Source: Vulcanimicrobiota bacterium
GTDB taxonomy: Bacteria > Vulcanimicrobiota > Vulcanimicrobiia > Vulcanimicrobiales > Vulcanimicrobiaceae
DNA length: 35,585 bases
Direction of reading: 5' to 3'
Assembly (NCBI GenBank): GCA_003158195.1
Contig: PMHP01000024.1
Span: 6,252-41,836 of the forward strand
Part shown: positions 1,495 to 35,244 of the stretch, in pieces
Position numbering within the stretch: the stretch's first letter is position 1
How the letters are laid out: each line of letters opens with the position of its first letter
Program-made: the position numbers and the translations under genes
Notes under the pieces: model-generated
Seen by the model: the letters and a program-made list of their open reading frames with translations, nothing else
Database searches by the model: none
Told to the model about the DNA's origin: nothing

Positions 1495-1544
1495 CCGTCC
1501 GCGGGTTTACAGATCTCTCGCCGTACCTAAGGAGTGCCCCAATT

Positions 1545-3251
1545 ATGACTCGTGGTTCATGGCCACTATTTGCCGGTACGTTCGCGGCCGGGCTGATGCT
1601 CGTGGCCTGTAGCGGCGGAGGCGGTTCCCCCGCGCCTTCGGCGCAAACCGCGCAGACGGCGCAACCGACTCAGTCACCGCAAAATCAGGCGACCCCGAAG
1701 CCAACGCCGGCGGCGACGCCGGCACCGACGCCGCTTGCATCGCCTGCGATCGTAACCATTCTCCTTACGGTGAACGGCACACCGGCCGTCGGCAGTCCGG
1801 GAACCTACACGATCACGATCGCCGCGGAGAGCGCGACCGGTTCCGTCATCACGGGCACGTACGCGACGCCCATTACCCTCTCGAACTCCGATACGAGCGG
1901 AGCCACGACGCTCAGCGTGACGAGTGTGCCGAGTTCCACGACGGCCGTAACGCTCGCCTACAGCGGTCTTGGCGGATCGCAGCTCGGCGGCTTCGACGGC
2001 GCGACGATCACCGCTTCGAGCGGCACCGCCTCGACCCAAGTCGCCTTTCTCTCCGGATCAGCCTGCACGACGTTCCCGGAAATCGGCGGCTACTATCCGT
2101 GCGATCTCCAAAGTGCGTATTCGCTCCCGAGCACGATTGCCGGAGCCGGTCAAACAGTCGCGGTCATCGATGCCTACGATAATCCGAAGGCGGAGACCGA
2201 TCTCGGCATCTACCGGGCGCAATTCGGATTGCCGCCGTGCACCACCGCCAACCATTGCTTTGAAAAAGTGAACCAACTCGGGCAGCAAGATAATCCGCCG
2301 GCCGCCGACACCATCGGTTGGTCGCTCGAGGAAACCCTCGACCTCGACATGGTTTCCGCCATTTGTCCGAACTGTCACATTCTTTTCGTCGAGGTGAACG
2401 ACGATTTAGGAAACGACCTCGCCGCCGGCGTAAGCGAGGCCGCTGCTCTCGGCGCAACGCAGATTAGCAACAGTTACGGCGGCCCCGAATACGCGACCGA
2501 GACCACCTTAGATTCGAACTACAACCAGCCGAACGCAATGGTCGTCGCTTCCTCCGGAGACTCGGATTACGGCGTCGCGTATCCCGCGAGCTCGCCGTAC
2601 GTCACCGCCGTCGGCGGGACCAATCTCACCGTCGCCTCCGATTTCCGCGGCTGGAACGAATTCGTATGGAACAACGCCAACGTGCAGGGCGCCGGCAGCG
2701 GGTGCAGCGCCTTCGAACCGAAACCGGCATGGCAAAACGATGCCGGTTGTCCAAATCGGATGGTCGCCGACGTCGCAGCCCTGGCCGATCCATACGCGGG
2801 CGTCGCCATCTACGATACCTACATCGTCGCCGGCTACACGTACGGCGGGTGGGCAGTCCTCGGCGGAACGAGCGTCGGCGCACCGATCGTTGCGGGCATC
2901 TATGCGCTCGCAGGCGCGAGCCCCGCGTTGCTCCACGATGCGTCGTACACGTACAGCCACACGAGCGCGCTCAACGACGTCACCAACGGCTCAAACGGCA
3001 CATGTCCGCTCACGACGCCGTACTTCTGCACGGCCGAAGTCGGCTACGACGGGCCGACCGGCAACGGAACGCCGAACGGTGTCGGCGCGTTCGGCGGACC
3101 GATGCTCGCCTCCACATCGTCCGCCGCGGTTCGTCGCAGCCACGTGAGGAAAGTACGTCAAGCGCTCCCCGGGGCTCGCCTCATCCGCGCCTGCCCGGAA
3201 CCGGTAACGGGGCACTTCTCCTGCGACTCGCTCTTCGTGCCGCAAACGTGA
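1545..3251 (+). CDS. S53 family (sedolisin) serine-carboxyl peptidase, lipoprotein, copy A
   Basis: Secreted endopeptidase of the sedolisin/kumamolisin family, expected to act outside the cytoplasmic membrane at acidic pH. The start at 1545 is chosen because AAGGAG lies at 1529-1534 and the copy at 5042 starts the same way; the longer open frame from 1446 only overlaps the upstream gene. Of 568 residues, 1-22 form a lipoprotein signal ending LMLVAC (lipid Cys22). Then come a Pro/Gln/Thr-rich linker, an Ig-like beta domain (about 66-165) and the S53 catalytic domain. The likely catalytic set is E262 and D266 in SLEETLDLD, oxyanion D339 in SSGDSD, and S443 in GGTSVGAP. The calcium site would be near NDVTNGSNG. 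The usual pro-kumamolisin activation domain is not recognisable. The C-terminus has ACPEP...HFSC, shared with copy B. The stop overlaps the GTG start of the next propeller gene by 4 bases. Confidence 0.92.
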   Translation: MTRGSWPLFAGTFAAGLMLVACSGGGGSPAPSAQTAQTAQPTQSPQNQATPKPTPAATPAPTPLASPAIVTILLTVNGTPAVGSPGTYTITIAAESATGSVITGTYATPITLSNSDTSGATTLSVTSVPSSTTAVTLAYSGLGGSQLGGFDGATITASSGTASTQVAFLSGSACTTFPEIGGYYPCDLQSAYSLPSTIAGAGQTVAVIDAYDNPKAETDLGIYRAQFGLPPCTTANHCFEKVNQLGQQDNPPAADTIGWSLEETLDLDMVSAICPNCHILFVEVNDDLGNDLAAGVSEAAALGATQISNSYGGPEYATETTLDSNYNQPNAMVVASSGDSDYGVAYPASSPYVTAVGGTNLTVASDFRGWNEFVWNNANVQGAGSGCSAFEPKPAWQNDAGCPNRMVADVAALADPYAGVAIYDTYIVAGYTYGGWAVLGGTSVGAPIVAGIYALAGASPALLHDASYTYSHTSALNDVTNGSNGTCPLTTPYFCTAEVGYDGPTGNGTPNGVGAFGGPMLASTSSAAVRRSHVRKVRQALPGARLIRACPEPVTGHFSCDSLFVPQT

Positions 3252-4969
3252 ACGGTTCGGGCCGCTTCGGTTCTTCCGTCGCCCTGCTCGCGAGTTTTGG
3301 GCTAGCAATCTCGTTTTGCGGCTGCAGCGGCGGAGGGAGCAACGCCGCTCCCGCGCCGCGGGTCGTCCCCACGACTCAAAGCGCTACCCCTACACAAAGC
3401 GCTACCCCGACGGCCAGTCCTGTTCGGACCGCAAGCCCAACCCAAACCGCGACCCCGTTGCCGACGGCAAGTCCGGCTCCCGCCACCCTAACGCAGACCG
3501 TGATGCTCGGCCTCTCGCAAACCGTCACGTTTGGTCAGATCGCCTCCGGGATCTCGGGAACCGTTGCCTTCCCTGCTACCAGCAGCGGTGAGGGCTCGGC
3601 CTCCGTTTCGCTGCAATCGACGCTGCCGGCCGGCGTGCCGGTTCCGCAATCGGTCGGTCGCGGGTCCGCATCCCGAGCGGAACGCTCGCGAGAGAACATC
3701 GGCGCGTCGGTCACGCCGCTGGCCTACATCGTGGTCGATACGAGCAGTCCGCTGACGTTCCAAGCGACGCCCGGCTTAACGTTTACCTTTCCCGCCAGTG
3801 CGCTCAGGGGCTATGCGTACCTGGCGTTCTTCGACCCGAACAATGCCGGGCTGGGCTGGAACGCGATCGCCGGTCCCGCGCCGGTGGGCGCTACGACCGT
3901 CACGCTTCCTTCAGCGCCGGATGCAACGCCGGCGCTCGAGCTCAGCCCAGGCACGGCCTACATTTTCGCGATCGTTGAGAACGGCTCAGTCCTGCCGACG
4001 CCGACGCCGGCTCCCTTCACGATCATCGAATACTACGTACCCGGGCCCAGCTCGTATATCGAGCCCATTACGGCGGGGCCCGACGGCAACGTCTGGTTTT
4101 TCCAGCAAGACGGCGTAGCCGGCGAGAGCGTCGACAAGATCACGCCAAGCGGCATTATCACGAAGTACGCGCTGAAAGTGCCGCCGTATCGCGATCCCCA
4201 GGGCATCACCGCCGGCCCGGACGGCAACATCTGGTTTACCGAAACGGCGCACTCTTCCATCGCAAAAGTCACGCCCGGCGGCGTGGTTACCGAGTATGCG
4301 TTGCCGATTCGTGGATCGGCGCCATGGGCAATCACGGGAGGTCCGGACGGTAACGTCTGGTTCACTCAACCGGATTTAGCGGTGGACGGCGGGTTCCCGA
4401 ACGGCGGTTATGGCGGGATCGGCAAGATCACCTCGAGCGGCGTCATAACGAACTACGCGCCTGCGATACCGCCGGGGACGCCGCCTAACACATTCGACCC
4501 GTCTCCGATCGGCATCGCGACCGGCGCCGACGGCAGCATATGGTTCGGCGACAACGGTAGCAATGCAATCGGCAAGATAACGCCGAGCGGCGTGCAGTCC
4601 ACGTATCCCGTACCCAGTGCGTACTCGGCCATAGACGGTCTTACCGCGGGCCCGGACGGCAATATCTGGTTTGTCGAACAGGGCGTAAGTCAGGTCGCCA
4701 AGATCACGCCGAGCGGGACGATAACGGAATTTCCCGTGCCCGGCGCAGGGGGTCTGACCGACATTGCGACGGGGCCCGACGGCAATCTCTGGGTGACCGA
4801 TCTGCCCTACAGTCAAATCTTTCGGATTACCCCGGCCGGCACGATCATCGGTACGTATCCCACCCCGACTCGACCCTCGGCACCCTATGGGATCACTGCG
4901 GGCCCGGACGGCAACATCTGGTTCGCAGAATCCGGAGTCAGCCAGATCGGCAAGATCTTGCTGCATTAG
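3248..4969 (+). CDS. Streptogramin lyase-like seven-bladed propeller lipoprotein, copy 2
   Basis: Exported propeller protein of 573 residues, paralogue of the gene at the left edge. The GTG start at 3248 overlaps the stop of the S53 gene (GTGA), which suggests translational coupling. It also gives a clean lipoprotein signal, with hydrophobic residues 11-23 followed by FCGCSGGG, so lipidation is at Cys24 or Cys26. A TQSATPTQSATPT-like linker follows, then the Ig-like beta domain, a TPTPAP linker and seven GPDGN-x-WF repeats. Compared with copy 1, about 15 extra residues rich in Arg and Ser sit in the beta domain (encoded at 3650-3709). The last blades lack the catalytic His of virginiamycin B lyase, so a lyase function is doubtful. 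A role in surface binding or interaction with the neighbouring peptidases is an inference from gene order. Confidence 0.86.
   Translation: MNGSGRFGSSVALLASFGLAISFCGCSGGGSNAAPAPRVVPTTQSATPTQSATPTASPVRTASPTQTATPLPTASPAPATLTQTVMLGLSQTVTFGQIASGISGTVAFPATSSGEGSASVSLQSTLPAGVPVPQSVGRGSASRAERSRENIGASVTPLAYIVVDTSSPLTFQATPGLTFTFPASALRGYAYLAFFDPNNAGLGWNAIAGPAPVGATTVTLPSAPDATPALELSPGTAYIFAIVENGSVLPTPTPAPFTIIEYYVPGPSSYIEPITAGPDGNVWFFQQDGVAGESVDKITPSGIITKYALKVPPYRDPQGITAGPDGNIWFTETAHSSIAKVTPGGVVTEYALPIRGSAPWAITGGPDGNVWFTQPDLAVDGGFPNGGYGGIGKITSSGVITNYAPAIPPGTPPNTFDPSPIGIATGADGSIWFGDNGSNAIGKITPSGVQSTYPVPSAYSAIDGLTAGPDGNIWFVEQGVSQVAKITPSGTITEFPVPGAGGLTDIATGPDGNLWVTDLPYSQIFRITPAGTIIGTYPTPTRPSAPYGITAGPDGNIWFAESGVSQIGKILLH
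3650..3709 (+). other. In-frame palindromic insertion inside the copy 2 propeller gene
   Basis: Between the conserved PVPQ and VTPLAY stretches, copy 1 has 5 residues and copy 2 has 20, so about 45 bases were gained in frame. The added stretch encodes an Arg/Ser/Glu-rich peptide (GRGSASRAERSRENIG) unlike the surrounding neutral sequence. It contains a perfect palindrome, CGAGCG-GAA-CGCTCG, at 3674-3688. It resembles the small palindromic elements that insert into genes in some bacteria. Loss from copy 1 is the alternative. Confidence 0.55.
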
Positions 4970-5041
4970 CATGTCGCGCCGAACGCTTTTCGTCGTTGCG
5001 ACCAAAACTCGTCGGCCCCAAGTTCAAGGAGTGTCCGAACT

Positions 5042-6742
5042 ATGACTCGAGGTTCATGTCCATCGCTCATTGGAGCCGTTGCGGCCGCGGTGGTGCTGGC
5101 AGCGTGCGGCGGTAGCGCCGGCGGCGGCTCTTCGCCGGTTCAGGCCGTGCCGGCGCCGCAAGCGACACAGGTCCCGCGACCGTCGCAGACCTCGCAGGCG
5201 GTTTCACCGACGCCAACGCCGGCGCCGGCCGCCGTGCAACTCGTGGTGGCCCTGGGCGGGACGCCCGAGATCGGGACTCCTGGAACCTATCCGATCACCA
5301 TCACCGCGGAGAGCGCCGGCGGCATGACCATCACGGGGACCTACGCAGCGCCGATCACGCTCTCCGACTCCGATGTGACCGGCGCGACCCGTCTCAGCGC
5401 GAGCACGCTGCCGAACTCCGCGAGCACCGTGTCACTCGTCTACAACGGCTTGGGCGGATCGGCACTTGGAGGCTTCCAAGGCGCGATCGTCACGGCGACA
5501 AGCGGAACCGTCTCGGGCGACGTCGTCTTTCTTTCCGGCGGAAACGGCTGCGTGTCGTTCAAGCAAATCAAGGGCTATTATCCATGCGATCTCCAGAGCG
5601 CGTACTCGCTGCCGAGTACGATTGCGGGCTCCGGACAAACCGTCGCCATCGTCGATGCGTTCTCCGACCCGAACGCGGAAGCCGATCTCGGCATCTACCG
5701 GTCGCAATTCGGTTTGCCGCCGTGCACGACGGCAAACCATTGCTTCACGAAAGTGAACGAGCGAGGGATTCAAGGCAGCCCACCGATGCTGGACACGACC
5801 GGCTGGTCCGTCGAGGAATCGCTCGACCTCGATATGGTTTCTGCGATTTGCCCGAATTGCCACCTGCTGATGGTCGAGGCAGACAGCAATTCTTCGCCTG
5901 ACTTAGGCTCCGCGGACGACGCAGCCGCCGCCTTGGGAGCAACCCAAATCAGTAACAGCTGGGGCGGCTACGAACAACTTGCGGAGACGACCTACGACGT
6001 TCACTTCAACCACCCCAACTCGACGATCGTCTTTTCCAGCGGAGACGGCGATTTTGATGATACGCCCGATTATCCGGCAAGTTCTCCGTACGTCACCGCG
6101 GTCGGCGGAACGAACCTCGCGATTGCCGCAAATGGCCGCGGCTGGATCGAAACCGTTTGGAATAACGGCGACGCACAAGGGACGGGCAGCGGCTGCAGCG
6201 GCTTCGAGCCGAAACCGGCATGGCAAACCGACGCGGGCTGCCCGAACAATCGCATGGTCGCCGACGTTGCAGCCGTGGCCGATCCCTTCAGCGGCGTCGC
6301 TTTCTACGACACCTACATCACCGACAACACCGGTGGATGGGAAGTCGTCGGTGGAACGAGCGTCGCTGCACCGATCATCGCCGGCGTGTACGCTCTCGCC
6401 GGTGCGAGCGCTGCATCGCTAAACCATGCATCCTCTACGTATAGCCACGCGAGTTCACTCAACGACGTAACGGACGGAAACGACGGCGACTGCGGAACCT
6501 ACGTCCAGTACTTCTGCACGGCCGAAGTCGGTTACGACGGACCCACCGGAAACGGGACCCCGAACGGCCTCGGCGCCTTCGGCGGACCAGCCTTGGTTTC
6601 AGAGCTCTCGAACGCATCCAGGAGCCGTCGCCCCGCCTGGCGCCATGTCGTCCAAGTACCTGCCGGCAGCCCCGTCATCCACGCGTGCGCGAAACCGGCA
6701 CCGGGCTTCTTCGGCTGCTTCGCGCTCATGGCGGTACCGTAG
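5042..6742 (+). CDS. S53 family (sedolisin) serine-carboxyl peptidase, lipoprotein, copy B
   Basis: Second sedolisin-type peptidase, 566 residues, closely related to copy A. The ATG at 5042 is preceded by AAGGAG at 5026-5031. The lipoprotein signal ends VLAAC (Cys22). A Pro/Gln/Ala-rich linker and an Ig-like beta domain precede the catalytic domain, replacing the usual activation prodomain. The likely catalytic residues are E258 and D262 in SVEESLDLD, D335 in SSGDGD, and S440 in GGTSVAAP. PNCHLL near the acid pair and GCSGFEPKPAWQ are conserved between both copies, and several paired cysteines suggest disulfides. The C-terminal tail carries HACAKP...FFGC, matching copy A. A 72-bp gap separates it from the propeller gene upstream, and I see no convincing promoter there, so the four genes may form one transcript. 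Confidence 0.92.
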   Translation: MTRGSCPSLIGAVAAAVVLAACGGSAGGGSSPVQAVPAPQATQVPRPSQTSQAVSPTPTPAPAAVQLVVALGGTPEIGTPGTYPITITAESAGGMTITGTYAAPITLSDSDVTGATRLSASTLPNSASTVSLVYNGLGGSALGGFQGAIVTATSGTVSGDVVFLSGGNGCVSFKQIKGYYPCDLQSAYSLPSTIAGSGQTVAIVDAFSDPNAEADLGIYRSQFGLPPCTTANHCFTKVNERGIQGSPPMLDTTGWSVEESLDLDMVSAICPNCHLLMVEADSNSSPDLGSADDAAAALGATQISNSWGGYEQLAETTYDVHFNHPNSTIVFSSGDGDFDDTPDYPASSPYVTAVGGTNLAIAANGRGWIETVWNNGDAQGTGSGCSGFEPKPAWQTDAGCPNNRMVADVAAVADPFSGVAFYDTYITDNTGGWEVVGGTSVAAPIIAGVYALAGASAASLNHASSTYSHASSLNDVTDGNDGDCGTYVQYFCTAEVGYDGPTGNGTPNGLGAFGGPALVSELSNASRSRRPAWRHVVQVPAGSPVIHACAKPAPGFFGCFALMAVP

Positions 6743-22155: not shown

Positions 22156-22683
22156 ATGAGACCTACCGAGGTTTTTGCACCGGCAGAGCCGCCGGCCGAT
22201 GGACAATCGGCACGGAAGAACCAGCTTGCCGTCACGCTTCGCGTGAATGGCGAATCGGTCGCACTCCAGATCGACCCGCGTACGACCTTACTCGACTGCC
22301 TGCGCGAGACCATGCGCCTTACCGGGACGAAAAAAGGCTGCGATCACGGCCAGTGCGGCGCCTGTACCGTTCACGTCAACGGGCGGCGGGTGAACTCGTG
22401 CCTGACGTTCGCCGTCATGCACCAAGGCGACGATATTACGACGATCGAGGGGCTCGGCCGCCCCGGCAGCCTTCACCCGGTGCAGGCAGCCTTCTTGGAA
22501 CACGACGCGTATCAATGCGGATACTGCACGCCGGGGCAGATCATGTCGGCCGCCGCACTCCTCGAAGAGCCCTGCGGTGCGACCGACGCTGACGTGAAGG
22601 AAGCGATGAGCGGCAACATCTGCCGGTGCGGAGCTTATCCGAACATCGTTTCCGCTATCCAGGACGTTCGGTCGGAGCGCTAA
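22156..22683 (+). CDS. paoA: Aldehyde oxidoreductase [2Fe-2S] subunit, PaoA (YagT)-like
   Basis: Electron-transfer subunit (175 residues) of a xanthine-dehydrogenase-family molybdoenzyme. The N-terminal plant-type [2Fe-2S] cluster uses C62, C67, C70 and C82 (KKGCDHGQCGACTV). The second cluster uses C121, C124, C156 and C158 (YQCGYCTPGQ and ICRCGAYPN). MHQGDDITTIEGLG and MSGNICRCGAY match PaoA of E. coli closely. Unlike PaoA, the 20-residue N-terminal extension has no twin-arginine signal, so this complex probably stays in the cytoplasm. The ATG at 22156 lies 15 bases after GGAGG, an unusually long gap, and that GGAGG can be paired in the leader. The stop is one base before the start of the FAD subunit. 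Confidence 0.93.
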   Translation: MRPTEVFAPAEPPADGQSARKNQLAVTLRVNGESVALQIDPRTTLLDCLRETMRLTGTKKGCDHGQCGACTVHVNGRRVNSCLTFAVMHQGDDITTIEGLGRPGSLHPVQAAFLEHDAYQCGYCTPGQIMSAAALLEEPCGATDADVKEAMSGNICRCGAYPNIVSAIQDVRSER

Positions 22684-22684
22684 C

Positions 22685-23686
22685 ATGGAGATGTTCGCGT
22701 TTAGCGAGGCCGCCGGCGTCGAGGACGCTATTCGCGCCGGAGCCGAATCGGGAACAGCGCAACAGGGCGCGCGCGTCCGCTTCGTCGCCGGCGGCACGAC
22801 GTTACTCGACCTGATGAAACTTGACGTCGAGCGTCCGCTCGCCGTCGTCGATATCAATGGTCTACCGCTCGATACGGTCACAAAGCTTACCGACGGTCGC
22901 CTGAAGATCGGCGCCCTCGTGCGCAATTCGGATCTCGCCTACCATCCCGACGTGCGCAGCAACTATGCCGTCTTATCGCAGGCACTCCTCTCCGGCGCCT
23001 CGGCCCAACTGCGCAACATGGCCACGACCGGAGGCAACCTGCTCCAGCGCACGCGTTGCATGTACTTCCGTAATCGTGCGCTGCCGTGCAACAAGCGAGA
23101 ACCGGGCTCCGGCTGTTCGGCAATCGAGGGCGAAAACCGCAGCCTAGCAATCCTCGGCACGAGCGCGCACTGCATCGCCACAAACCCCTCCGACATGAAC
23201 GTCGCGCTGACCGCCCTCGGGGCGGTTATTCAGATCGAGGGCACGGCGGGCAAACGCGAGGTACCGATCGAGGCCTTCTTCTTCGAGCCCGGCGATACGC
23301 CCGAGCGCGAGAACGTTCTCGATCCGGGAGACCTGGTTACCTCGGTCACGCTACCGCCGCCACCGCAGAACTGCAGCCAGGTCTACCTCAAGCTACGCGA
23401 TCGTGCCTCGTACGAATTTGCTCTGGCCTCTGCGGCGATCGTTGCGTCGGTAGACAACGGCACGTTCAGCTACATTCGCGTCGCACTCGGCGGCGTCGCG
23501 AGCAAGCCGTGGCGCTCGCTCGAAGCCGAGGAACAGCTTTACGATCAGCCCGTCGACGAAGCGTCGTTTCGGCGCGCTGCCGATGCGGCGCTAGCCGGGG
23601 CACGCCCGCAAAGCCGCAACGGCTTCAAGATCGAGCTGGCCAAGCGTTGCATCGTGCACGCGCTCGGCGTGGCGACGGCGTCATGA
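22685..23686 (+). CDS. paoB: Aldehyde oxidoreductase FAD subunit with extra [4Fe-4S] site, PaoB (YagS)-like
   Basis: FAD-binding subunit of 333 residues that passes electrons between the [2Fe-2S] centres and the external acceptor. The FAD loop is FVAGGTTLLDLMKL, and the second flavin motif is ATTGGNLLQRTRC. As in E. coli PaoB, an insert carries four cysteines, C125, C135, C144 and C163 (TRCMYFRN, PCNKREPGSGC, AHCIATNPSDM), which bind an additional [4Fe-4S] cluster absent from most xanthine dehydrogenases. The gene starts one base after the paoA-like stop and overlaps the next gene as ATGA, so the three subunits are tightly coupled. Confidence 0.93.
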   Translation: MEMFAFSEAAGVEDAIRAGAESGTAQQGARVRFVAGGTTLLDLMKLDVERPLAVVDINGLPLDTVTKLTDGRLKIGALVRNSDLAYHPDVRSNYAVLSQALLSGASAQLRNMATTGGNLLQRTRCMYFRNRALPCNKREPGSGCSAIEGENRSLAILGTSAHCIATNPSDMNVALTALGAVIQIEGTAGKREVPIEAFFFEPGDTPERENVLDPGDLVTSVTLPPPPQNCSQVYLKLRDRASYEFALASAAIVASVDNGTFSYIRVALGGVASKPWRSLEAEEQLYDQPVDEASFRRAADAALAGARPQSRNGFKIELAKRCIVHALGVATAS

Positions 23687-25887
23687 CGGTGTCGCCGGCC
23701 GGCAGCTCCGTGCCTCGCATCGAGGGACCGCTGAAAGTCAGTGGTATCGCGACGTACACTTCCGACTTCAACTTCCCGGGCTTGCTTTACGCGGTACCGG
23801 TGTGTGCGACGATCGGAAGCGGAACGATCGCCGGGCTCGATACAAGCGTTGCCGGGTCGATGCCGGGCGTGCAGGCCGTCTACCACCGTGCGAACATCGG
23901 GCGGATCTATCGTTCCGCGCCCGACGAGGGGCTGGGCACGCATCTGGACGAGCGGCGCCCGCCGTTCGAGGATGACGTTATCCGCTACTACGGTCAGTAC
24001 GTTGCCGCCGCCGTCGCCGATACCTACGAGCAGGCGATTGCCGCCGCTAACGCCGTCAAGGTGACGTACGACGCGAAAGAACCCGACGTCCGCGATCAGC
24101 TCGAGCCCGAGGGGCAACCGAACCTCGACGGCGAGCGTGGCGATCCCGATGCGGCATTCGATTCGGCTCCCGTCAAAATCGACCAGACGTACAGCACCCC
24201 GGTCGAAACGCACAATCCGATTGAGTTGCACGCGAGCGTCGCCGTCTGGGACGGGCAGGACTTCACGCTGTATGAGACCACGCAAGGCGTCGTGAACCAT
24301 CGCGACGTTGCGGCAGAGATGCTCGGCGTGCCGAAAGAACGGGTCCGGGTCATCTCGCGATTTCTTGGCTCCGGCTTCGGTGGCAAACTCTTCCCTTGGC
24401 CACATAGCTTCATCGCTGCCGCCGCCGCACGCGACCTGAATCGTCCCGTCAAGCTCGTCGTTTCGCGCGACATGATGTTCCAGAACGTCGGGCACCGCCC
24501 CCGAACGCAACAGCGCATCCGCCTTGGAGCCGGCTCCGACGGCAAGCTCGTCGCGCTCATGCACGACTCGCTCAACCACACCTCGATCCTCGACGACTAC
24601 CAAGAAAACTGCAGCGAAGCGACGCCCTACAGCTATTCGACGCCCAACTTCCGCGCGACGTCAGGCCTCGCCCGCCGCAACGTCGGCACGCCGACATCGA
24701 TGCGCGGCCCCGGCGCCGTGCCGGGCTTGTACGCGCTCGAGTCCGCCATGGACGAACTTGCCATCGCACTCGGCATCGATCCGGTCGAGCTTCGCCTGCG
24801 CAACGAGCCAAACAAGGATGAAGGTTTGGACCTGCCGTTTTCCTCGCGCCATCTCGTCGAGTGTTTGGCCGTCGGAGCTAAGCGGTTCGGCTGGTCCGGG
24901 CGCGATCCGCGCGTCGGTTCGATGCGCAAGAACGGGCTCATTCTCGGCTGGGGCGTCGCGGGGTGTTCGTGGATTGCGGAGCGGTTCGCCGCACAGGTAG
25001 CCGTTGATCTCCGCGACGACGGGAGCGCGCGCGTTGCAACGGCGACGCAGGACATCGGGACCGGCACGTACACCGTGCTCGCGAATGTCGTCTCCGAAAA
25101 GACCGGTATTCCGGCGAACAAGATCGAGGTCGTTCTCGGCGACACCAACTTGCCGCCGGGACCGATTTCGGGCGGCTCGATGGTTACTGCGTCCGTAATC
25201 CCGGCCGTCTCCCAAGCGATCGAAAGCGCACAACAGCGCATCCTCATGGCTGCGATCGAGACGGAGGGCACGCCGTTCTACGGCCTCGAGGCTGACGCGC
25301 TGGCGTTTAGCGGCGGCATCGTCCACCGCAAGAACGAAGGCCCCGAGCGGGGGATGGCGTTCGAGAAGATCCTCGCGAAGGCGAAGGCACGGTCAACTTC
25401 AGGCTTGGGCAAAGCCGAAGCGACCTTCGGCAGCGAAGACCGGAAATTCTCGCAGCATTCATTCGGGGCGCAGTTCGCCGAAGTGACGTGGCAGCCCGAG
25501 ATCGCGCGGCTGCGCGTGTCGCGCGTCGTGACCGTCATTGATGCCGGTCGCATCATCAACCCCAAGCCGGCGCGTAACCAGATCGAAGGTTCGGTCGTGA
25601 TGGGCGTCGGCATGGCGCTGCTGGAAGCGACCGAGTACGACGCGCGCTTCGGCGCACCGATCAACAACAATCTTGCGGATTACATGGTCGCAACCAATGC
25701 CGACGCACCGCAGATCGAGGTGACGTTCCTCGATTATCCTGACCGGGTGCTCAACGACATGGGCGCCCGGGGCGTCGGGGAGATTGGGCTCGCGGGCATC
25801 GCTGCGGCAATTACCGCCGCCGTTTACCATGCGACCGGCGTCCGCGTGCGCAACCTGCCGGTCCGGCTCGAAGAACTTCTCGCTTAG
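23683..25887 (+). CDS. paoC: Aldehyde oxidoreductase molybdenum-binding subunit, PaoC (YagR)-like
   Basis: Catalytic subunit of 734 residues, close to the 732 of E. coli PaoC, expected to oxidise aldehydes to acids at a Mo-MCD cofactor. The start at 23683 follows from the ATGA overlap with the FAD subunit; the longer open frame is an artefact. Cofactor-binding stretches include RFLGSGFGGK, MRGPGAVPGLYALE, TQDIGTGTYTV and SGGSMVTAS. The base-catalyst Glu is E700 in GARGVGEIGLAG. The SMRGPG motif and short length place it with PaoC rather than with xanthine dehydrogenase XdhB. No PaoD/XdhC-type maturation gene follows; the next gene is a convergent AraC regulator whose stop overlaps this one. 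Confidence 0.94.
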   Translation: MTVSPAGSSVPRIEGPLKVSGIATYTSDFNFPGLLYAVPVCATIGSGTIAGLDTSVAGSMPGVQAVYHRANIGRIYRSAPDEGLGTHLDERRPPFEDDVIRYYGQYVAAAVADTYEQAIAAANAVKVTYDAKEPDVRDQLEPEGQPNLDGERGDPDAAFDSAPVKIDQTYSTPVETHNPIELHASVAVWDGQDFTLYETTQGVVNHRDVAAEMLGVPKERVRVISRFLGSGFGGKLFPWPHSFIAAAAARDLNRPVKLVVSRDMMFQNVGHRPRTQQRIRLGAGSDGKLVALMHDSLNHTSILDDYQENCSEATPYSYSTPNFRATSGLARRNVGTPTSMRGPGAVPGLYALESAMDELAIALGIDPVELRLRNEPNKDEGLDLPFSSRHLVECLAVGAKRFGWSGRDPRVGSMRKNGLILGWGVAGCSWIAERFAAQVAVDLRDDGSARVATATQDIGTGTYTVLANVVSEKTGIPANKIEVVLGDTNLPPGPISGGSMVTASVIPAVSQAIESAQQRILMAAIETEGTPFYGLEADALAFSGGIVHRKNEGPERGMAFEKILAKAKARSTSGLGKAEATFGSEDRKFSQHSFGAQFAEVTWQPEIARLRVSRVVTVIDAGRIINPKPARNQIEGSVVMGVGMALLEATEYDARFGAPINNNLADYMVATNADAPQIEVTFLDYPDRVLNDMGARGVGEIGLAGIAAAITAAVYHATGVRVRNLPVRLEELLA

Positions 25888-29106: not shown

Positions 29107-30372
29107 ATGGGAGCCGCTGCGGAATTGAAGGAATTGTCGGTTGCGCCTCAAGCGATGCTCGCGGGTCTTCGCGTGCTCGATCTCTCGACGATGATCGCGG
29201 CCCCGCTAGCCGGCACGTTGCTTGGGGATTGGGGCGCCGACGTCGTCAAGGTCGAGCAACCGGGCGAAGGCGATCACGTTCGGCGCTTCGGAGCGCAGCG
29301 TCTGGGCCAGGGGCTGTACTGGAAGGCGCTCGGACGCGGGAAACGAAGCGTCGCGCTCGATTTGCACCGGCCCGAGGCGCAAGCGCTGCTGCGCCGGTGG
29401 GCGCCGTCGTTTGACGCGATCATCGAAAATTTCCGCCCGGGTACGCTCGAACGCTGGAATCTCGATCCGAAAGCGCTCCTGGAGCAGACGCCGCGCCTAG
29501 TCGTTCTGCGAACGACGGCTTTCGGCCAGGACGGACCGTACCGGAATCGCCCCGGTTTCGGAACGCTCGCCGAGGCGATGTCCGGCCTCGCCGCCGTGAC
29601 CGGGTTCCCGGATCGGCCGCCCCTGTTGCCGGCATATCCGCTTGCCGACGTCCTGGCCGGATACCTCGGTGCGAGCGCGATTCTCGCCGCCCTCATACGG
29701 CGCGAGCGAACGGGGGCCGGCGAAATCATCGATCTTGCAATCTACGAGGCCGCGCTCAAAACGATCGAGTCTCAGGTCGTTGAGTACGATCAGAACGGGA
29801 CACTTCATTCGCCGCAAGGCAATCGGATCGGCGACTCGGCACCGCGAGGCGCATACCAGTGCGCGGACGGGAAATGGCTCGCGCTGTCGGCCAGCACGCA
29901 GAGCATCGCCGAACGCGTGCTGCGCGTGATCGGCGGCGAAGCGCTCGCCCGCGATCCGCGCTTTCGGACCAACCTCGACCGGCTGGCGCACATCGCCGAG
30001 CTCGACGAACTCGTCGCGGGGTGGTGTGCGCGCCTTCCGCGCGAGGATGCGCTCGCGGTGTTCGACGCAGCGAACTGCGCTGCCGGGCCGCTCGAGAACG
30101 TCGCAACGATGCTTGACAATCCGCAGGTCGTCGCCCGCGAATCGATCGTCTCCGTCGACGATCCGGTGCTCGGGTCCATCCGGATGAGCAACGTCTATCC
30201 GCGCTTCACGTCGGCGCACGCGCCCCCGCAGACGACCGGAGCGTCGCGGGTTGGGGAGCACACGCGCGAAGTCCTCGGCGCCGATCTCGACATCGATGCG
30301 GCGGAATTCGACCGTCTTGAGGCTCTGGGAGCGTTCGGGCCGAGCGGTGCTCGCGCGAGCGCAGGAGCGTGA
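29107..30372 (+). CDS. CaiB/BaiF family (class III) CoA transferase
   Basis: Cytoplasmic enzyme of about 421 residues that moves CoA from a donor such as succinyl- or acetyl-CoA to a carboxylic acid. It opens with LAGLRVLDLSTMIAAPLAG and WGADVVKVEQPGEGD, the standard front of the family. The catalytic Asp is in PAYPLADVLAGYLG (D181 with this start). The later GRGKRSVALDLHRPE, FRPGTLERW, RPGFGTLAEAMSG and GAGEIIDLAIYEAA blocks are also typical. ATG at 29107, TTG at 29134 and ATG at 29155 are alternative starts; the last would begin MLAGLRVL, nearest to family members. None has a clear ribosome site. The stop overlaps the GTG of the CitE-like gene (GTGA). As first gene of the operon, it should activate the acid imported by the TRAP system. 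Confidence 0.92.
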   Translation: MGAAAELKELSVAPQAMLAGLRVLDLSTMIAAPLAGTLLGDWGADVVKVEQPGEGDHVRRFGAQRLGQGLYWKALGRGKRSVALDLHRPEAQALLRRWAPSFDAIIENFRPGTLERWNLDPKALLEQTPRLVVLRTTAFGQDGPYRNRPGFGTLAEAMSGLAAVTGFPDRPPLLPAYPLADVLAGYLGASAILAALIRRERTGAGEIIDLAIYEAALKTIESQVVEYDQNGTLHSPQGNRIGDSAPRGAYQCADGKWLALSASTQSIAERVLRVIGGEALARDPRFRTNLDRLAHIAELDELVAGWCARLPREDALAVFDAANCAAGPLENVATMLDNPQVVARESIVSVDDPVLGSIRMSNVYPRFTSAHAPPQTTGASRVGEHTREVLGADLDIDAAEFDRLEALGAFGPSGARASAGA

Positions 30373-31262
30373 GCGCGACCAGCAGTCCGGCTTGGCGCTC
30401 GCTGCTGTATGTCCCGGCGAACGTCGAACGATTCGTCGAGGCCGCGAACCGCAGCGGTGCCGACGGGATCCAGCTCGATCTCGAGGACGCGGTCGCGCCA
30501 AGCGAAAAAGCAGCTGCGCGGCGAGCCGTCCCCGCGGCGGCGGAAACGGTGTCCCGCGGTGGGGCCGACGTTATCGTGCGCATCAATCGGCCGCTGTCGC
30601 TGGCCTTGGACGACATCGAGGCCAGCGTCTCCCCGAACGTCGGCACCCTCGCCTTACCGAAAGTCATGGGCGCCGACCACATACGGCTGCTCTCCGAAGC
30701 CGTCGCCGAAGCTGAGGCGCGTAACGGCATCGTGCCTGGAACGACGCGTTTCATCGTCATGATCGAGACGGCGGAAGCCGTCGCCCGCGCGAGCGAGATC
30801 GCCAAGGCCGATCCGCGCGTGATTGCGCTGACGCTCGGAGGCGAGGATCTCGCAAGCGACCTCGGCGTCGATCCCGGCGCCGACGTGCTCGGCGCATACC
30901 ATGCCGCGGTCGTCGCCGCAGCCGTCGCGGCCCGCGTGATCCCCCTCGGGCTCGTCGGTTCGATCGCGCAGTTTCGGGATCTCGACGCTTTCGCCGCCAC
31001 CGCCCGGCGTTCGCGCGAATTCGGCTATCGCGGCGCCGCGTGCATCCATCCGGCCCAAGTTCCGATTCTCAACGCCGCGTTCACGCCAAAACTCGAGGAC
31101 GTCGAGCGCGCTCGAGAGATCGTCGCCGCGTACGAAGCAGCCCACGCTGCCGGAGCGGGCGCGATCTCGCTCGACGGCCGCATGATCGACGTTCCGGTAG
31201 CCGAGCGCGCCCGCGCGCTCATTGCTTCGTATGAAGCCGCCACTTCACACCTCGCTCGATAA
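30369..31262 (+). CDS. HpcH/HpaI-CitE family acyl-CoA lyase (malyl/citramalyl-CoA lyase-like)
   Basis: Cytoplasmic TIM-barrel lyase of 297 residues. It has the CitE/Mcl features: RSLLYVPANVERF at the start, substrate Arg R71 in VRINRP, metal and CoA region E39/D40 in LDLEDAV, E133 in VMIETAEAV, D160/D164 in GGEDLASDLG, and the C-terminal YRGAACIHPAQVPILN. Enzymes of this type cleave beta-hydroxyacyl-CoA esters, for example malyl-CoA, citramalyl-CoA or citryl-CoA, to acetyl-CoA plus an oxoacid. Next to a class III CoA transferase this predicts a two-step activation and cleavage. The GTG start overlaps the upstream stop by four bases, with AGGAG just before it. The next gene follows after 9 bases. 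Confidence 0.92.
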   Translation: MSATSSPAWRSLLYVPANVERFVEAANRSGADGIQLDLEDAVAPSEKAAARRAVPAAAETVSRGGADVIVRINRPLSLALDDIEASVSPNVGTLALPKVMGADHIRLLSEAVAEAEARNGIVPGTTRFIVMIETAEAVARASEIAKADPRVIALTLGGEDLASDLGVDPGADVLGAYHAAVVAAAVAARVIPLGLVGSIAQFRDLDAFAATARRSREFGYRGAACIHPAQVPILNAAFTPKLEDVERAREIVAAYEAAHAAGAGAISLDGRMIDVPVAERARALIASYEAATSHLAR

Positions 31263-31271
31263 AGGTTAAGC

Positions 31272-32297
31272 ATGCAACAATCATTGTCTCGTAACACCTT
31301 CGTGCGCGTTGCCGCGGGCGGAGCCGCTGCCTTCGCCTCGATCGGCATCTTGCGCTATCCGGCCGGGGCGGCCGAATTCACGCTGAAGTTCGCCGACGAC
31401 CTTCCGCCCGATCACCCGACCAACGTGACCGCCCGCGATGTTGCGGCGAAGGTTTCCGCTCGCAGCAACGGCCGGGTCGAGCTCCAGGTCTTTCCGGCGA
31501 ATCAATTGGGCAACGATACGCAGATGCTCTCGCAGTTACGATCGGGCGCGATTCAATTCATGGCAGTCGGCGACAATATCCTCGCAACGCTCGTCCCCGC
31601 GGCCGCCATCGACAACGTCGGGTTCACGTGGGCCGATGCTAAGACCGCGTTTCGCGCGCTCGACGGCGACCTCGGCGCCTACGTTCGCGGCGAGATCGAG
31701 AAAGCCGGACTTCACCCGATGACGAAGATCTGGGACGAGGGCTTTCGCGAGATGACGAGTTCCACGAGGCCGCTCCTAAAGCCGGAAGATCTTGCAGGCT
31801 TTAAGATGCGCGTCCCACCGAGTCCGATCTCGACGGCACTCTTCGCGGCGCTCGGCGCTTCGCCGACGACCATTAACATCAAGGACCTTTATTCAGCGCT
31901 CGAGACGCACATCGTCGACGGCCAGGAAAACGCGCTTTCGTTGATCGACTCGCAGAAATTCTACGAGGTGCAAAAGTACTGCTCGCTGACGAATCACATG
32001 TTCGTCGGCTATTGGGTTTTGGCGAACCCGGACGCCTTCAACAAGTTGCCCAAGGACATGCAGAACCTCGTCGCTGGGGCGCTCGACGAAGGCGCGCCGT
32101 CGCAGCGCGAGGCCAACGTTCACGAAGACGCGACCGTGCGCGGCAAACTCACCTCCGAGGGCATGCAAATCGCCGACGTCGATCGGGGCGCATTCCGGAA
32201 AAAACTCGTCGAAGCCGGGTTCTATAAGCAGATGCGCGATCAGTTCGGCCCCAAGGCGTGGGGGCTGCTGGAAAAATATGCCGGAAAAGTGACCTGA
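31272..32297 (+). CDS. dctP: TRAP transporter substrate-binding protein, DctP family
   Basis: Periplasmic binding protein of 341 residues. A Tat-like signal (LSRNTFVRVAAGGAAAFASIG) precedes the mature part, which begins EFTLKFADDLPPDHPTN. Family landmarks are VFPANQLGNDTQML, PEDLAGFKMRVPPSP, LGASPTTINIKDLYSALET and VDGQENALSL. The Arg of the KMRVP segment normally makes the salt bridge to the substrate carboxylate, so an organic acid is the likely ligand. AAAGG at 31261-31265 overlaps the stop codon of the lyase gene. The fused permease gene starts five bases after this stop. Confidence 0.93.
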   Translation: MQQSLSRNTFVRVAAGGAAAFASIGILRYPAGAAEFTLKFADDLPPDHPTNVTARDVAAKVSARSNGRVELQVFPANQLGNDTQMLSQLRSGAIQFMAVGDNILATLVPAAAIDNVGFTWADAKTAFRALDGDLGAYVRGEIEKAGLHPMTKIWDEGFREMTSSTRPLLKPEDLAGFKMRVPPSPISTALFAALGASPTTINIKDLYSALETHIVDGQENALSLIDSQKFYEVQKYCSLTNHMFVGYWVLANPDAFNKLPKDMQNLVAGALDEGAPSQREANVHEDATVRGKLTSEGMQIADVDRGAFRKKLVEAGFYKQMRDQFGPKAWGLLEKYAGKVT

Positions 32298-32301
32298 GGC
32301 G

Positions 32302-34203
32302 ATGGCGGCGACCGAAGGGACCCTAACTGCCGACGCCGTCGGCGCGTCCCAGTCGTTGGAGACGGAACGGGAGCCGATTCGGCGGTTCGACGCAGTCGAC
32401 CGCTACCTCAAATGGATCACCGAGATCCCGGCAGCGCTGCTCGTCATAACGGAAGTCGGCGTTCTTCTGGCCGGCGTCGTGGCGCGCTACGTCCTCAACA
32501 AGCCGCTCCTCTGGAGCGACGAGCTGGCCGAGACCTTGTTCCTGTGGCTCGTTATGTTCGGTTCCGTCATCGCGCTGCGCCGCAGCGAGCACATGCGCAT
32601 GACGGCGATCGTCAACCGGCTACCGCTAAAATGGCAGCGCTGGACTTCGACGACGGCGCTGCTCGTCGTCGGCGTCGTGCTGTTGATCCTGCTTCCCAAC
32701 GCCAAAGATTACATGGTGACGCAATACGACATCCTCACGCCCGCGATGCAGATCCACGATGCGTATCGGGTGCTCGGAATGGTCGTCGGTATCGTCTTGA
32801 TGCTCGTGATCGCCGGCGTCAGAATCGTCGAGGAAGCCGATTGGCGCGGGGTGGCCGGCGCGGCCGGCATCGTCGCGCTCGTGGGCGTCGCGATGGCGCT
32901 CGCGCGGCCTGAGTTCGCGGCGCTCGGCAACCTCAGCCTCGCGGTGTTTTTCCTCGGCCTCGTCGGCGTTTGCGTCGCGGCCGGCATTCCGATCGCGTTT
33001 TGCTTTGCGCTTGCCACGTTGACCTATCTCACGTTCGCCGCGCCGACGACGCTTTCGGTCGTCGTCGGTCAGATGGATCAGGGAATGTCGTCGCTCGAGT
33101 TGCTCGCCGTCCCGATGTTCGTGCTCCTCGGACTCCTGCTCGAGATGACCGGCATCGCGCGCGTGCTCGTTGACTTTCTGGCCGCGCTCGTCGGGCGCGT
33201 GCGCGGCGGTCTTTCGTACGTCTTGCTCGGAGCGATGTTTCTGATCTCGGGGATTTCGGGCTCGAAGGCAGCCGATCAAGCCGCCGTCGCACCGGTGCTG
33301 TTTCCCGAAATGAAGCGCCGGGGCGCGAATCCGGGCGAACTCGTCGCGCAGCTAGCCGCATCGGCCGCGATGTCGGAGACGATCCCGCCGAGTCTCGTGC
33401 TGATCATCATCGCATCGGTAACCGGCGTGTCGATCGCATCCCTCTTTACCGGCGGGATCATGCCGGCATTCGTCGCGGGCCTCGCGCTCGTCATCGTCAC
33501 GTTCTTCCGATCGCGGGGCGAAAAGTCCGGAGAAGGGCCGCGCCCGACTGCAGCGCAGATCGCTCGCGCCTTCGTGATCGCGATCCCGGGTCTACTCTTA
33601 CCGTTTCTCGTGCGCTACTTCGTGCTCAAGGGGATTACGACGGCGACCGAGGTCGCGACGATCGGTATCGGGTACTCGGTCATCGTCGGGATTTTCGTGT
33701 ATCGTCGATTCCAGTGGCGGCGCGTGCTGCCGATCTTAGTCGATACGGCGTCGCTCTCCGGTGCGATTCTGCTCATCATCGGGTCGGCGACCGCAATGGC
33801 GTGGGCGTTGACGCAAGCGGGCTTCGCCCAGTCGCTCGCCGACTCGATGTCGAAGGTTCCCGGCGGCGCCGGCGGCTTTCTTGCGATCTCGATCGTCGTG
33901 TTCATCGTACTCGGCAGCGTGCTCGAAGGCATCCCGGCGATCGTGCTTTTCGGTCCGCTGCTGTTCCCGATCGCGCGCGAACTGCACATCAACGACGTGC
34001 ACTACACGATGGTCGTCATTCTCTCGATGGGGATCGGGCTGTTCTCACCGCCCTTCGGCGTCGGCTTCTATCAATCGGTGCTCATCGGACGCTCGACCAC
34101 GGACGCCGCGATCGGGCGGATGTTCCCGTATCTGGCCGCCGTCGCCGTCGCGCTCGTTCTCGTCGCCGCGATCCCGTGGCTGTCGACCGGTTTTCTGCAC
34201 TAA
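32302..34203 (+). CDS. TRAP transporter fused permease (DctQ-DctM)
   Basis: Inner-membrane sodium- or proton-coupled permease of 633 residues that combines both membrane subunits. Residues about 40-200 are the small DctQ-type domain with four helices and the motif LLWSDELAETLFLWLVMFG...RRSEHMRM. Residues about 205-633 are the large DctM domain with AAGIPIAFCFALATLTYL, SSLELLAVPMFVLLGLLLEMTG, FLISGISGSKAADQAA and AMSETIPPSLVLI. The helix between QITRAF and the second half is intact, and no frameshift is visible. Fused QM permeases are known, often for dicarboxylates and related acids. GAGG is only two bases before the ATG. It is the last gene of the operon and ends five bases before the convergent NIPSNAP gene. 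Confidence 0.93.
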   Translation: MAATEGTLTADAVGASQSLETEREPIRRFDAVDRYLKWITEIPAALLVITEVGVLLAGVVARYVLNKPLLWSDELAETLFLWLVMFGSVIALRRSEHMRMTAIVNRLPLKWQRWTSTTALLVVGVVLLILLPNAKDYMVTQYDILTPAMQIHDAYRVLGMVVGIVLMLVIAGVRIVEEADWRGVAGAAGIVALVGVAMALARPEFAALGNLSLAVFFLGLVGVCVAAGIPIAFCFALATLTYLTFAAPTTLSVVVGQMDQGMSSLELLAVPMFVLLGLLLEMTGIARVLVDFLAALVGRVRGGLSYVLLGAMFLISGISGSKAADQAAVAPVLFPEMKRRGANPGELVAQLAASAAMSETIPPSLVLIIIASVTGVSIASLFTGGIMPAFVAGLALVIVTFFRSRGEKSGEGPRPTAAQIARAFVIAIPGLLLPFLVRYFVLKGITTATEVATIGIGYSVIVGIFVYRRFQWRRVLPILVDTASLSGAILLIIGSATAMAWALTQAGFAQSLADSMSKVPGGAGGFLAISIVVFIVLGSVLEGIPAIVLFGPLLFPIARELHINDVHYTMVVILSMGIGLFSPPFGVGFYQSVLIGRSTTDAAIGRMFPYLAAVAVALVLVAAIPWLSTGFLH

Positions 34204-34208
34204 CGCGC

Positions 34209-34514
34209 TTACGAAACGCGCCGGACGAAGGCTCGCTCTTCGTTGAGAATGCATCCGGCCGCGTCGACGCGGCGCAGGCATTCGACGGCGCCCGGGTCGG
34301 ACATCAGCCGTTCGCGGTACTGTTCGTAGGCCGCAAGATTTGGAAAGTCGATCAGTCCTAGCGCCACGTTTGTGGGCCCGGCAACCTTGGTCGGCAAATA
34401 GTAGGCGACGGACGCGCCGCCGCACCGTTCGATCGGCTGCACCAAGGCCTGCGCATACGCCTCGAAATCGGCTAACTTCCTTGGGTCAAGCGTGTAGCGG
34501 ATGCACAACGTCAT
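34209..34514 (-). CDS. NIPSNAP family protein
   Basis: Small protein of 101 residues with a ferredoxin-like dimeric alpha/beta barrel of the NIPSNAP type: CIRYTLDPRKLADFEAYAQAL, GASVAYYLPTKVAG, NVALGLIDFPNLAAYEQYRERL and the closing NEERAFVRRV. The molecular function is unknown; relatives are found beside catabolic and transport genes and may bind or isomerise small acids. The ATG lies inside the end of the ArsR-type gene (29-base overlap), so the two are co-transcribed. It converges on the TRAP permease gene. Confidence 0.9.
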   Translation of the reverse strand: MTLCIRYTLDPRKLADFEAYAQALVQPIERCGGASVAYYLPTKVAGPTNVALGLIDFPNLAAYEQYRERLMSDPGAVECLRRVDAAGCILNEERAFVRRVS

Positions 34515-35244
34515 CGTTCGCCTCCCCGTTGAAGCCGCGGAAATTTCGGCCGAGTTCGTGTGCCCAGACGATGCCGAATGCGTCGCGAAGTGCGGCGATC
34601 CCGCGCGCGGTCACGTCGAGCGCGCGCGTGGACGCGCGGCGTCGCACCCACTCGTTTTCGAGCGCGTGCCGGCACAGTGCCGCGCCGGCAACTCCCGCGA
34701 CGTGCCAGCGGCGCTCGCTCCAGTCGAGACACGCGCGGCACTGCGGGCGGCGTCCTGCGAGGTCATACGCGATGCCAAGTCGCCCGAAGAGGTCCAGCCC
34801 TTGTGGCGTAAGCCGCACGCCGGCCTCGTCGAACGCGATCGCGCCGCCGTTGCGCAACGCGTCGGCGAGCGAGACCCCGAGCACCCCGGCAAGGTGATCG
34901 TAACAGGTTCGCGCGCGTCGTAGCGCCTCATCCAGGCCGCGTGCGGTCGGATGTCGCGGCTCGGGTGCCGGGGCGAGAACCATCAGCGACTCGAGCGCGT
35001 GGGCTACTTCCGGGGAGCCGATCCGGTAATACCGATGGCGGCCTTGCGCAATAACGCTCACGAGCGCGCTGCGAACCAAGCGCGCAAGATGCACGCTCGC
35101 CGTCGATGGCGTCACGTTCGCCGCGCGCGCGAGTTCGCGGCCGGTCCATGCGCGACCGTCCATGAGGCTCGCGAGCATTTCGGCGCGCGAGGGGTCCGCG
35201 ACGAGTCGCGCCAGGCCTGCGAGGGAAAACGCGCTATCCGACAC
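34486..35244 (-). CDS. ArsR-like winged-helix regulator with C-terminal extension
   Basis: Transcription regulator of 252 residues. Residues 10-90 are an ArsR-type winged helix: LVADPSRAEMLASLMDG, ARAANVTPSTASVHLARLV and the wing QGRHRYYRIG. The long C-terminal part, about twice the usual size, includes RPQCRACLDWSERRWHV and ALCRHALENEWVRR. Its Cys residues do not match the known metal sites of ArsR, so a small organic ligand is more likely. The start is GTG at 35244, as an in-frame TGA lies six bases upstream. It is co-transcribed with NIPSNAP and may control that gene, itself and the convergent CoA-transferase operon. Confidence 0.88.
   Translation of the reverse strand: MSDSAFSLAGLARLVADPSRAEMLASLMDGRAWTGRELARAANVTPSTASVHLARLVRSALVSVIAQGRHRYYRIGSPEVAHALESLMVLAPAPEPRHPTARGLDEALRRARTCYDHLAGVLGVSLADALRNGGAIAFDEAGVRLTPQGLDLFGRLGIAYDLAGRRPQCRACLDWSERRWHVAGVAGAALCRHALENEWVRRRASTRALDVTARGIAALRDAFGIVWAHELGRNFRGFNGEANDDVVHPLHA

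What the first reader, a model, noticed from the sequence alone, without database searches (positions are those of the whole stretch)
29107..35244. Candidate pathway: TRAP uptake, CoA activation and CitE-type cleavage of an organic acid
The tight order CoA transferase, lyase, TRAP binding protein and fused TRAP permease, facing an ArsR-NIPSNAP pair, predicts a complete route from an external acid to acetyl-CoA plus an oxoacid. No hydratase is present, so the substrate is likely a hydroxyacid such as malate or citramalate, or a close analogue, rather than itaconate.
Basis: partly seen in the sequence, partly recalled or inferred. Interest (0 to 1): 0.6.

Follow-up and report, generated by a model that had tools for sequence, protein, structure and literature searches.

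The report
Uptake-and-cleavage operon for hydroxy acids
A bacterium carries a compact set of four genes that probably imports a small organic hydroxy acid, attaches coenzyme A to it and splits it in two; relatives of the set recur in other bacteria, but the acid itself is not yet known.

Summary
The gene order is real and exact: family III CoA-transferase, CitE-like lyase, TRAP binding protein and fused DctQM permease form a tight operon (4-bp overlap, 9-bp and 4-bp gaps). It is more than chance. The binding protein belongs to a strongly supported clade of 18 sequences (16 loci); 9 of the 16 loci carry a CitE-like lyase nearby, nearly always with a CaiB, against 0 of 55 loci from the rest of the subfamily. 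Three points change. The ArsR-NIPSNAP pair occurs elsewhere without these genes and is probably an independent neighbour. The lyase keeps every catalytic residue but sits in an uncharacterised subfamily in which an Asp and a Lys conserved in the solved relatives aligned here are replaced, with a two-residue insertion; malate or citramalate specificity cannot simply be transferred. The operon is a mosaic: its CoA-transferase groups with home-family enzymes, one of them beside a 2-hydroxyisobutyryl-CoA mutase. My best guess is a tertiary alpha-hydroxy acid, citramalate first; malate is unlikely. No step is proven biochemically.

The parts
29107..30372 (+). Family III (CaiB/BaiF) CoA-transferase; proposed activator of the imported acid; catalytic Asp at residue 181
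   Evidence: PF02515 1.3e-112; Asp181 present in 53 of 53 aligned sequences including YfdE; sister with 100/100 support to same-family CaiBs beside TRAP genes. An in-frame ATG at 29155 is an alternative start.
30369..31262 (+). CitE-like acyl-CoA lyase; proposed retro-aldol cleavage of the CoA ester into acetyl-CoA (or another acyl-CoA) and a 2-oxoacid
   Evidence: PF03328 3.2e-34; D37, E39, D40, R71, E133, D160 and lid D274 conserved; Gly194, insertion 197-198 and Ala223 mark an uncharacterised subfamily
31272..32297 (+). TRAP substrate-binding protein (DctP)
   Evidence: PF03480 2.7e-72; TIGR00787 233 bits against cut-off 175; closest solved structure 4oan; clade of 18 with motif Gly100-Asp101-Asn102 and Ser187
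32302..34203 (+). Fused TRAP permease: DctQ domain (residues 52-178) and DctM domain (219-627)
   Evidence: PF04290 1.4e-25 and PF06808 1.2e-101
34209..34514 (-). NIPSNAP-family protein, probably an independent neighbour
   Evidence: PF07978 9.4e-16; recurs beside the same ArsR type in Methylorubrum and Rhodovulum without CaiB, CitE or TRAP genes
34486..35244 (-). ArsR-type winged-helix regulator with long C-terminal part (252 aa), partner of NIPSNAP
   Evidence: PF12840 1.6e-6, NF033788 51.5 bits against cut-off 55; plasmid homologues at 45-53% identity

Best explanation
The four plus-strand genes form a catabolic operon. The TRAP system imports a small, already hydroxylated carboxylic acid. 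The family III CoA-transferase moves CoA onto it, probably from succinyl-CoA or acetyl-CoA. The CitE-like lyase then splits the 3-hydroxyacyl-CoA by Mg2+-dependent retro-aldol cleavage into acetyl-CoA (or another acyl-CoA) and a 2-oxoacid such as pyruvate. Most likely substrate: a tertiary alpha-hydroxy acid, with citramalate as the leading single candidate (about 35%). Shown: gene identities, operon layout, conserved linkage, intact catalytic residues. Inferred: transport direction and ligand, CoA donor, substrate and products. The ArsR-NIPSNAP pair is probably not part of it.
For: Operon spacing and families. Linkage: 9 of 16 loci of the SBP clade carry CitE nearby against 0 of 55 loci outside it (Fisher p 1.5e-7; 3e-6 without the window and the locus found through the lyase), including the same CaiB-CitE-SBP-QM order in L087 and, with a duplicated SBP, L285, and variants L208, L266, L282, L287, L288, L289. 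SBP clade support 100/97. Lyase and CoA-transferase catalytic residues conserved. In place of the Trp that lies near the methyl group of the oxoacid in malyl-CoA lyases (PMC3832036) the window has Ala, as in RipC. No hydratase noticed inside any of these clusters. Related home-family CaiB-SBP-QM genes adjoin a 2-hydroxyisobutyryl-CoA mutase operon (L060; 4r3u best hit 2e-212), and 2-acetolactate is a reported TRAP ligand (PMC5812351); both are 2-hydroxy-2-methyl acids like citramalate.
Against: The lyase subfamily has lost an Asp (position 194) and a Lys (223) found in the solved relatives aligned here and carries an insertion next to the residue that contacts the citramalyl methyl group in Rv2498c, so its substrate may differ. 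The SBP residues that mark the clade differ from 4oan, so the 4oan ligand cannot be transferred; that 4oan is the acetolactate structure is my recollection. The window CaiB belongs with enzymes whose loci lack a lyase. Seven of 16 clade loci show no lyase in the sequence read, some on short contigs.
Confidence: 0.7

Rival explanations
1. Same route but another substrate: 3-hydroxy-3-methylglutarate, a 2-alkylmalate, citrate-type or other branched hydroxy acid, with a product other than pyruvate.
For: Rebuilt beta7/beta8 region of the lyase; a single CitE-like enzyme, Rv2498c, cleaves both citramalyl-CoA and (R)-HMG-CoA (PMC6689899); one clade locus (L187/L087) lies near an aconitase-family hydro-lyase and MmgE/PrpD genes.
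Against: No conserved extra enzyme in the clusters points to one of these acids.
Confidence: 0.35
2. The operon serves uptake and activation of malate, cleaved to acetyl-CoA and glyoxylate.
For: Malyl-CoA lyases are the best-scoring solved relatives.
Against: Malate enters the TCA cycle directly; Pro and Trp of the malyl-CoA lyase pocket (PMC3832036) are absent; haloarchaeal malyl-CoA lyase model 64 bits against cut-off 500.
Confidence: 0.07
3. The lyase-like protein is a thioesterase, as (3S)-malyl-CoA thioesterase of Rhodobacter, or only tunes CoA pools, and the CoA-transferase feeds another pathway such as the B12 mutase on contig C148.
For: Home-family CaiB-SBP-QM loci lack the lyase and one adjoins a 2-hydroxyisobutyryl-CoA mutase; this genome has such a mutase elsewhere.
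Against: The thioesterase group has Glu in place of the lid Asp (PMC3832036); here it is Asp274, as in nearly all aligned relatives. Lyase linkage to this SBP clade recurs in other genomes.
Confidence: 0.1
4. ArsR senses the substrate or its CoA ester and NIPSNAP is an accessory of the pathway.
For: They face the operon with a 5-bp gap.
Against: The pair recurs with other neighbours; no NIPSNAP relative was found in the 80 lyase loci searched or around the clade SBPs.
Confidence: 0.08

Closest known systems
Itaconate degradation pathway (Ict/RipA, Ich/RipB, Ccl/RipC)
   Same: CoA-transferase followed by a CitE-superfamily lyase that yields acetyl-CoA and pyruvate
   Different: No hydratase; lyase of another subfamily (149 bits against RipC cut-off 375); dedicated TRAP transporter
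Succinyl-CoA:citramalate CoA-transferase plus citramalyl-CoA lyase (EC 2.8.3.20/2.8.3.22 and 4.1.3.46/4.1.3.25)
   Same: Two-step activation and cleavage without hydratase; the closest functional parallel
   Different: Membership not tested by sequence for the CoA-transferase; the lyase here lacks the Asp/Lys pair of CLYBL and RipC and has an insertion
Second citramalyl-CoA lyase homologue of Cupriavidus necator beside a CoA-transferase (PMC12290011)
   Same: CoA-transferase and lyase without hydratase; judged by its authors not to serve itaconate assimilation
   Different: No sequence comparison made here; no TRAP link described in the section read
TRAP binding protein 4oan and its subfamily
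   Same: About 54% identity; fused QM permease typical of the group
   Different: Window clade has Gly-Asp-Asn at 100-102, Ser187, Val245 instead of Ser-Gly-Leu, Trp, Asp
2-hydroxyisobutyryl-CoA mutase system (HcmAB)
   Same: A home-family relative couples related CaiB-SBP-QM genes to HcmAB
   Different: The window operon has a lyase instead of a mutase

Membership tests
CitE-like superfamily (PF03328) | Pfam match over the gathering score and the equivalents of D42, E44, D45, R76, E141, D168, D299 of R. sphaeroides malyl-CoA lyase | tested here: met
   118.6 bits against 25; all equivalents present (residues from PMC3832036)
RipC/Ccl itaconate lyase | NCBIfam NF038242 equivalog cut-off 375 bits | tested here: not met
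   148.8 bits
RipABC itaconate pathway | itaconyl-CoA hydratase in the cluster | tested here: not met
   none among the cluster genes or the neighbours scanned
Citrate lyase CitE subunit | TIGR01588 cut-off 443.4 bits and CitD/CitF partners | tested here: not met
   170.9 bits; no CitD or CitF in the operon
Haloarchaeal malyl-CoA/beta-methylmalyl-CoA lyase | NF041626 cut-off 500 bits | tested here: not met
   64 bits
Malyl-CoA thioesterase group | Glu in place of the lid Asp (PMC3832036) | tested here: not met
   Asp274
Solved CitE-like lyases (CLYBL, RipC, 1sgj, malyl-CoA lyases) | Asp on beta7 and Lys before the IHP motif, no two-residue insertion | tested here: not met
   Gly194 in 95 of 95 and no Lys at 223 in the window subfamily, against Asp in 11 of 12 and Lys in 11 of 12 outside; insertion also seen in an independent profile alignment
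Family III CoA-transferase | PF02515 and catalytic Asp | tested here: met
   377 bits; Asp181
Named CoA-transferases (succinate-glutarate, oxalate, mesaconate, formyl-CoA, carnitine) | NCBIfam model cut-offs | tested here: not met
   best 242.8 bits against 750
TRAP DctP/QM transporter | DctP plus DctQ and DctM | tested here: met
Citramalate degradation by CoA-transferase and lyase | activity on citramalate and citramalyl-CoA | not testable with these tools
   needs enzyme and binding assays

The most novel reading that the evidence does not exclude
A widespread, hydratase-free catabolic route for an imported tertiary alpha-hydroxy acid, run by an uncharacterised CitE-like lyase subfamily whose altered beta7/beta8 active-site side gives it a substrate range not known for malyl- or citramalyl-CoA lyases, and paired with interchangeable carboxylate importers.
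Probability: 0.45. Interest if true: 0.55.

Novelty: new variant of a known kind. Interest (0 to 1): 0.42.

Why it matters
It gives a testable function to three protein groups that the curated models searched here leave unassigned: a CitE-like subfamily common in Pseudomonadota, a TRAP binding-protein clade, and a family III CoA-transferase branch. Citramalate and related branched hydroxy acids occur in soil and root exudates (own knowledge), and a dedicated uptake and degradation operon for them did not turn up in the literature searched here. The link between relatives of the same genes and 2-hydroxyisobutyryl-CoA mutase suggests a shared theme, uptake of 2-hydroxy-2-methyl acids, that ligand screening could settle quickly.

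Tried and rejected
Considered and rejected: citrate lyase, RipC and haloarchaeal malyl-CoA lyase (model scores far below cut-off); thioesterase (lid Asp); ArsR-NIPSNAP as part of the pathway. Direct transfer of the acetolactate ligand was rejected because the window clade differs from 4oan at likely pocket positions. No structure was predicted, since the tools return no coordinates to inspect. An ungapped reading of the beta7 segment was first considered; the gapped alignments replaced it.

Full report
Observation. The four plus-strand genes are packed as an operon: the CoA-transferase stop overlaps the lyase start by 4 bp, then gaps of 9 and 4 bp. The permease is a true DctQ-DctM fusion. The minus-strand NIPSNAP and ArsR genes overlap each other by 29 bp and end 5 bp from the permease. 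No hydratase was found among the cluster genes or the neighbouring genes scanned. The window is part of a 44-kb contig of a 4.03-Mb, 79% complete genome in 248 contigs; the organism name is not given.

Is the linkage more than chance? A scan with the lyase gave 80 loci, mostly alpha- and betaproteobacteria. A CaiB gene lies within about 6 kb of the lyase in 57 of 88 loci examined, directly upstream on the same strand in 35. Several transporter kinds occur beside this pair: TRAP with a distant binding protein plus aldehyde and alcohol dehydrogenases (L046, L047, L115, L128), TctABC (L048, L138), and in G005 a branched-chain-type ABC system beside the lyase alone, judged by eye from translations (L052). 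One locus, L087, repeated the window order exactly. Starting from the binding protein instead, a tree of 74 sequences puts the window in a clade of 18 with 100/97 support. Of the 16 loci in that clade, 9 carry a CitE-like gene nearby (window, L087, L208, L266, L282, L285, L287, L288, L289), and all but L289, cut by the contig end, also carry CaiB; a tenth genome, G239, has the pair 55 kb away on the same contig. None of the 55 loci from outside the clade does (Fisher p 1.5e-7; 3.2e-6 without the window and L087, which came from the lyase scan). Caveats: the loci are not phylogenetically independent and the flanks differ in length. I saw no hydratase inside any of these clusters, although not every neighbouring gene was scanned with profiles.

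The lyase. All residues that the malyl-CoA lyase structures identify as catalytic or Mg-binding are present, including the lid Asp, which is Glu in the thioesterase group (PMC3832036). The tree separates the window protein, with 94 others, from human CLYBL, RipC and 1sgj with 100/100 support. The 95 share Gly194 where 11 of 12 others have Asp, lack the Lys that 11 of 12 others have at position 223, and mostly carry a two-residue insertion at 197-198. A separate profile alignment to solved structures shows the same replacements and the same insertion relative to malyl-CoA lyases, CLYBL, 1sgj and RipC. [quoted passage not shown] placing these residues on the window stretch 194-200 and position 224 is my reading of the alignments. 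The window has no Pro or Trp there. I read this as a more open pocket than in malyl-CoA lyases, which speaks against malate, but the exact substrate cannot be deduced. Within the binding-protein clade, L287 and L288 carry a lyase of the ordinary Asp/Lys kind and L266 carries both kinds in tandem, which hints that both kinds serve the same chemistry.

The CoA-transferase. The catalytic Asp is present (residue 181). It matches none of the named enzymes at cut-off. Its closest relatives are CaiB genes of the same bacterial family that precede related TRAP genes without a lyase (100/100), not most CaiBs of the lyase modules. The operon therefore looks like a mosaic. One of these relatives, L060, is followed by the large subunit, GTPase and B12 subunit of a 2-hydroxyisobutyryl-CoA mutase and a CoA ligase; the best solved relative is 4r3u, and the Ile and Asp that set this mutase apart (own knowledge) are present. 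The window genome has another such mutase on contig C148.

The binding protein. The nearest solved structure is 4oan, about 54% identical. A review lists 2-acetolactate among TRAP ligands found by large-scale screening (PMC5812351); that 4oan is that structure is from memory. The window clade differs at Gly100-Asp101-Asn102 and Ser187 (18 of 18) and Val245 (17 of 18), where others have mostly Ser-Gly-Leu, Trp and Asp. That these positions line the pocket is inferred from other TRAP proteins, not measured.

ArsR and NIPSNAP. The same long ArsR type sits beside NIPSNAP in Methylorubrum and Rhodovulum plasmids with hydrolase, monooxygenase or LysE genes, and no CaiB, CitE or TRAP genes. No NIPSNAP relative was found near the lyases or clade binding proteins. 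A short ArsR gene next to the L208 binding protein may be coincidence.

Mechanism and confidence. Import, CoA transfer and retro-aldol cleavage: 0.7. Citramalate as the substrate: about 0.35. Other branched hydroxy acid: about 0.35. Malate: below 0.1. The argument for a 2-hydroxy-2-methyl acid is circumstantial: acetolactate among TRAP ligands, 2-hydroxyisobutyrate by gene context in a relative, and the need for a ready-made hydroxyl group.

Novelty. CoA-transferase plus lyase routes are known for itaconate and citramalate, and a CoA-transferase/lyase pair without hydratase was noted in C. necator as not serving itaconate (PMC12290011). The conserved coupling to this TRAP clade and the distinct lyase subfamily did not turn up in the papers searched. 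I rate it a new variant of a known kind, of moderate interest.

Noticed in passing
L060:1938-10580 (G023:C238): A same-family genome couples CaiB, TRAP binding protein and fused permease to a complete 2-hydroxyisobutyryl-CoA mutase operon, suggesting a dedicated uptake route for 2-hydroxyisobutyrate.
   Followed up: partly
L258:791-3871 (G000 contig C148): The window's genome carries its own 2-hydroxyisobutyryl-CoA-mutase-type enzyme (56% identity, Ile/Asp hallmark residues) with a GTPase and B12 subunit.
   Followed up: partly
L046, L047, L115, L128: The CaiB-CitE pair with a distant TRAP system plus aldehyde and zinc alcohol dehydrogenases, as if a primary alcohol were oxidised before activation and cleavage.
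   Followed up: no
L149-L156, L190, L195, L196: Relatives of the binding protein sit beside split transketolases with a short-chain dehydrogenase, or beside acyl-CoA synthetase, thiolase and DUF296 genes; the subfamily probably has several substrates.
   Followed up: no
L285 (G923), L290 (G922): Two tandem binding-protein genes before one permease; in L290 a carboxymuconolactone-decarboxylase-family gene lies between them.
   Followed up: no
window 22156-25887: Molybdenum hydroxylase set: 2Fe-2S subunit, FAD subunit and large molybdopterin subunit in consecutive genes.
   Followed up: no
window 1446-6742: Lipoprotein-like proteins with similar starts in neighbouring genes; the one scanned (5042-6742) has no Pfam match.
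   Followed up: no
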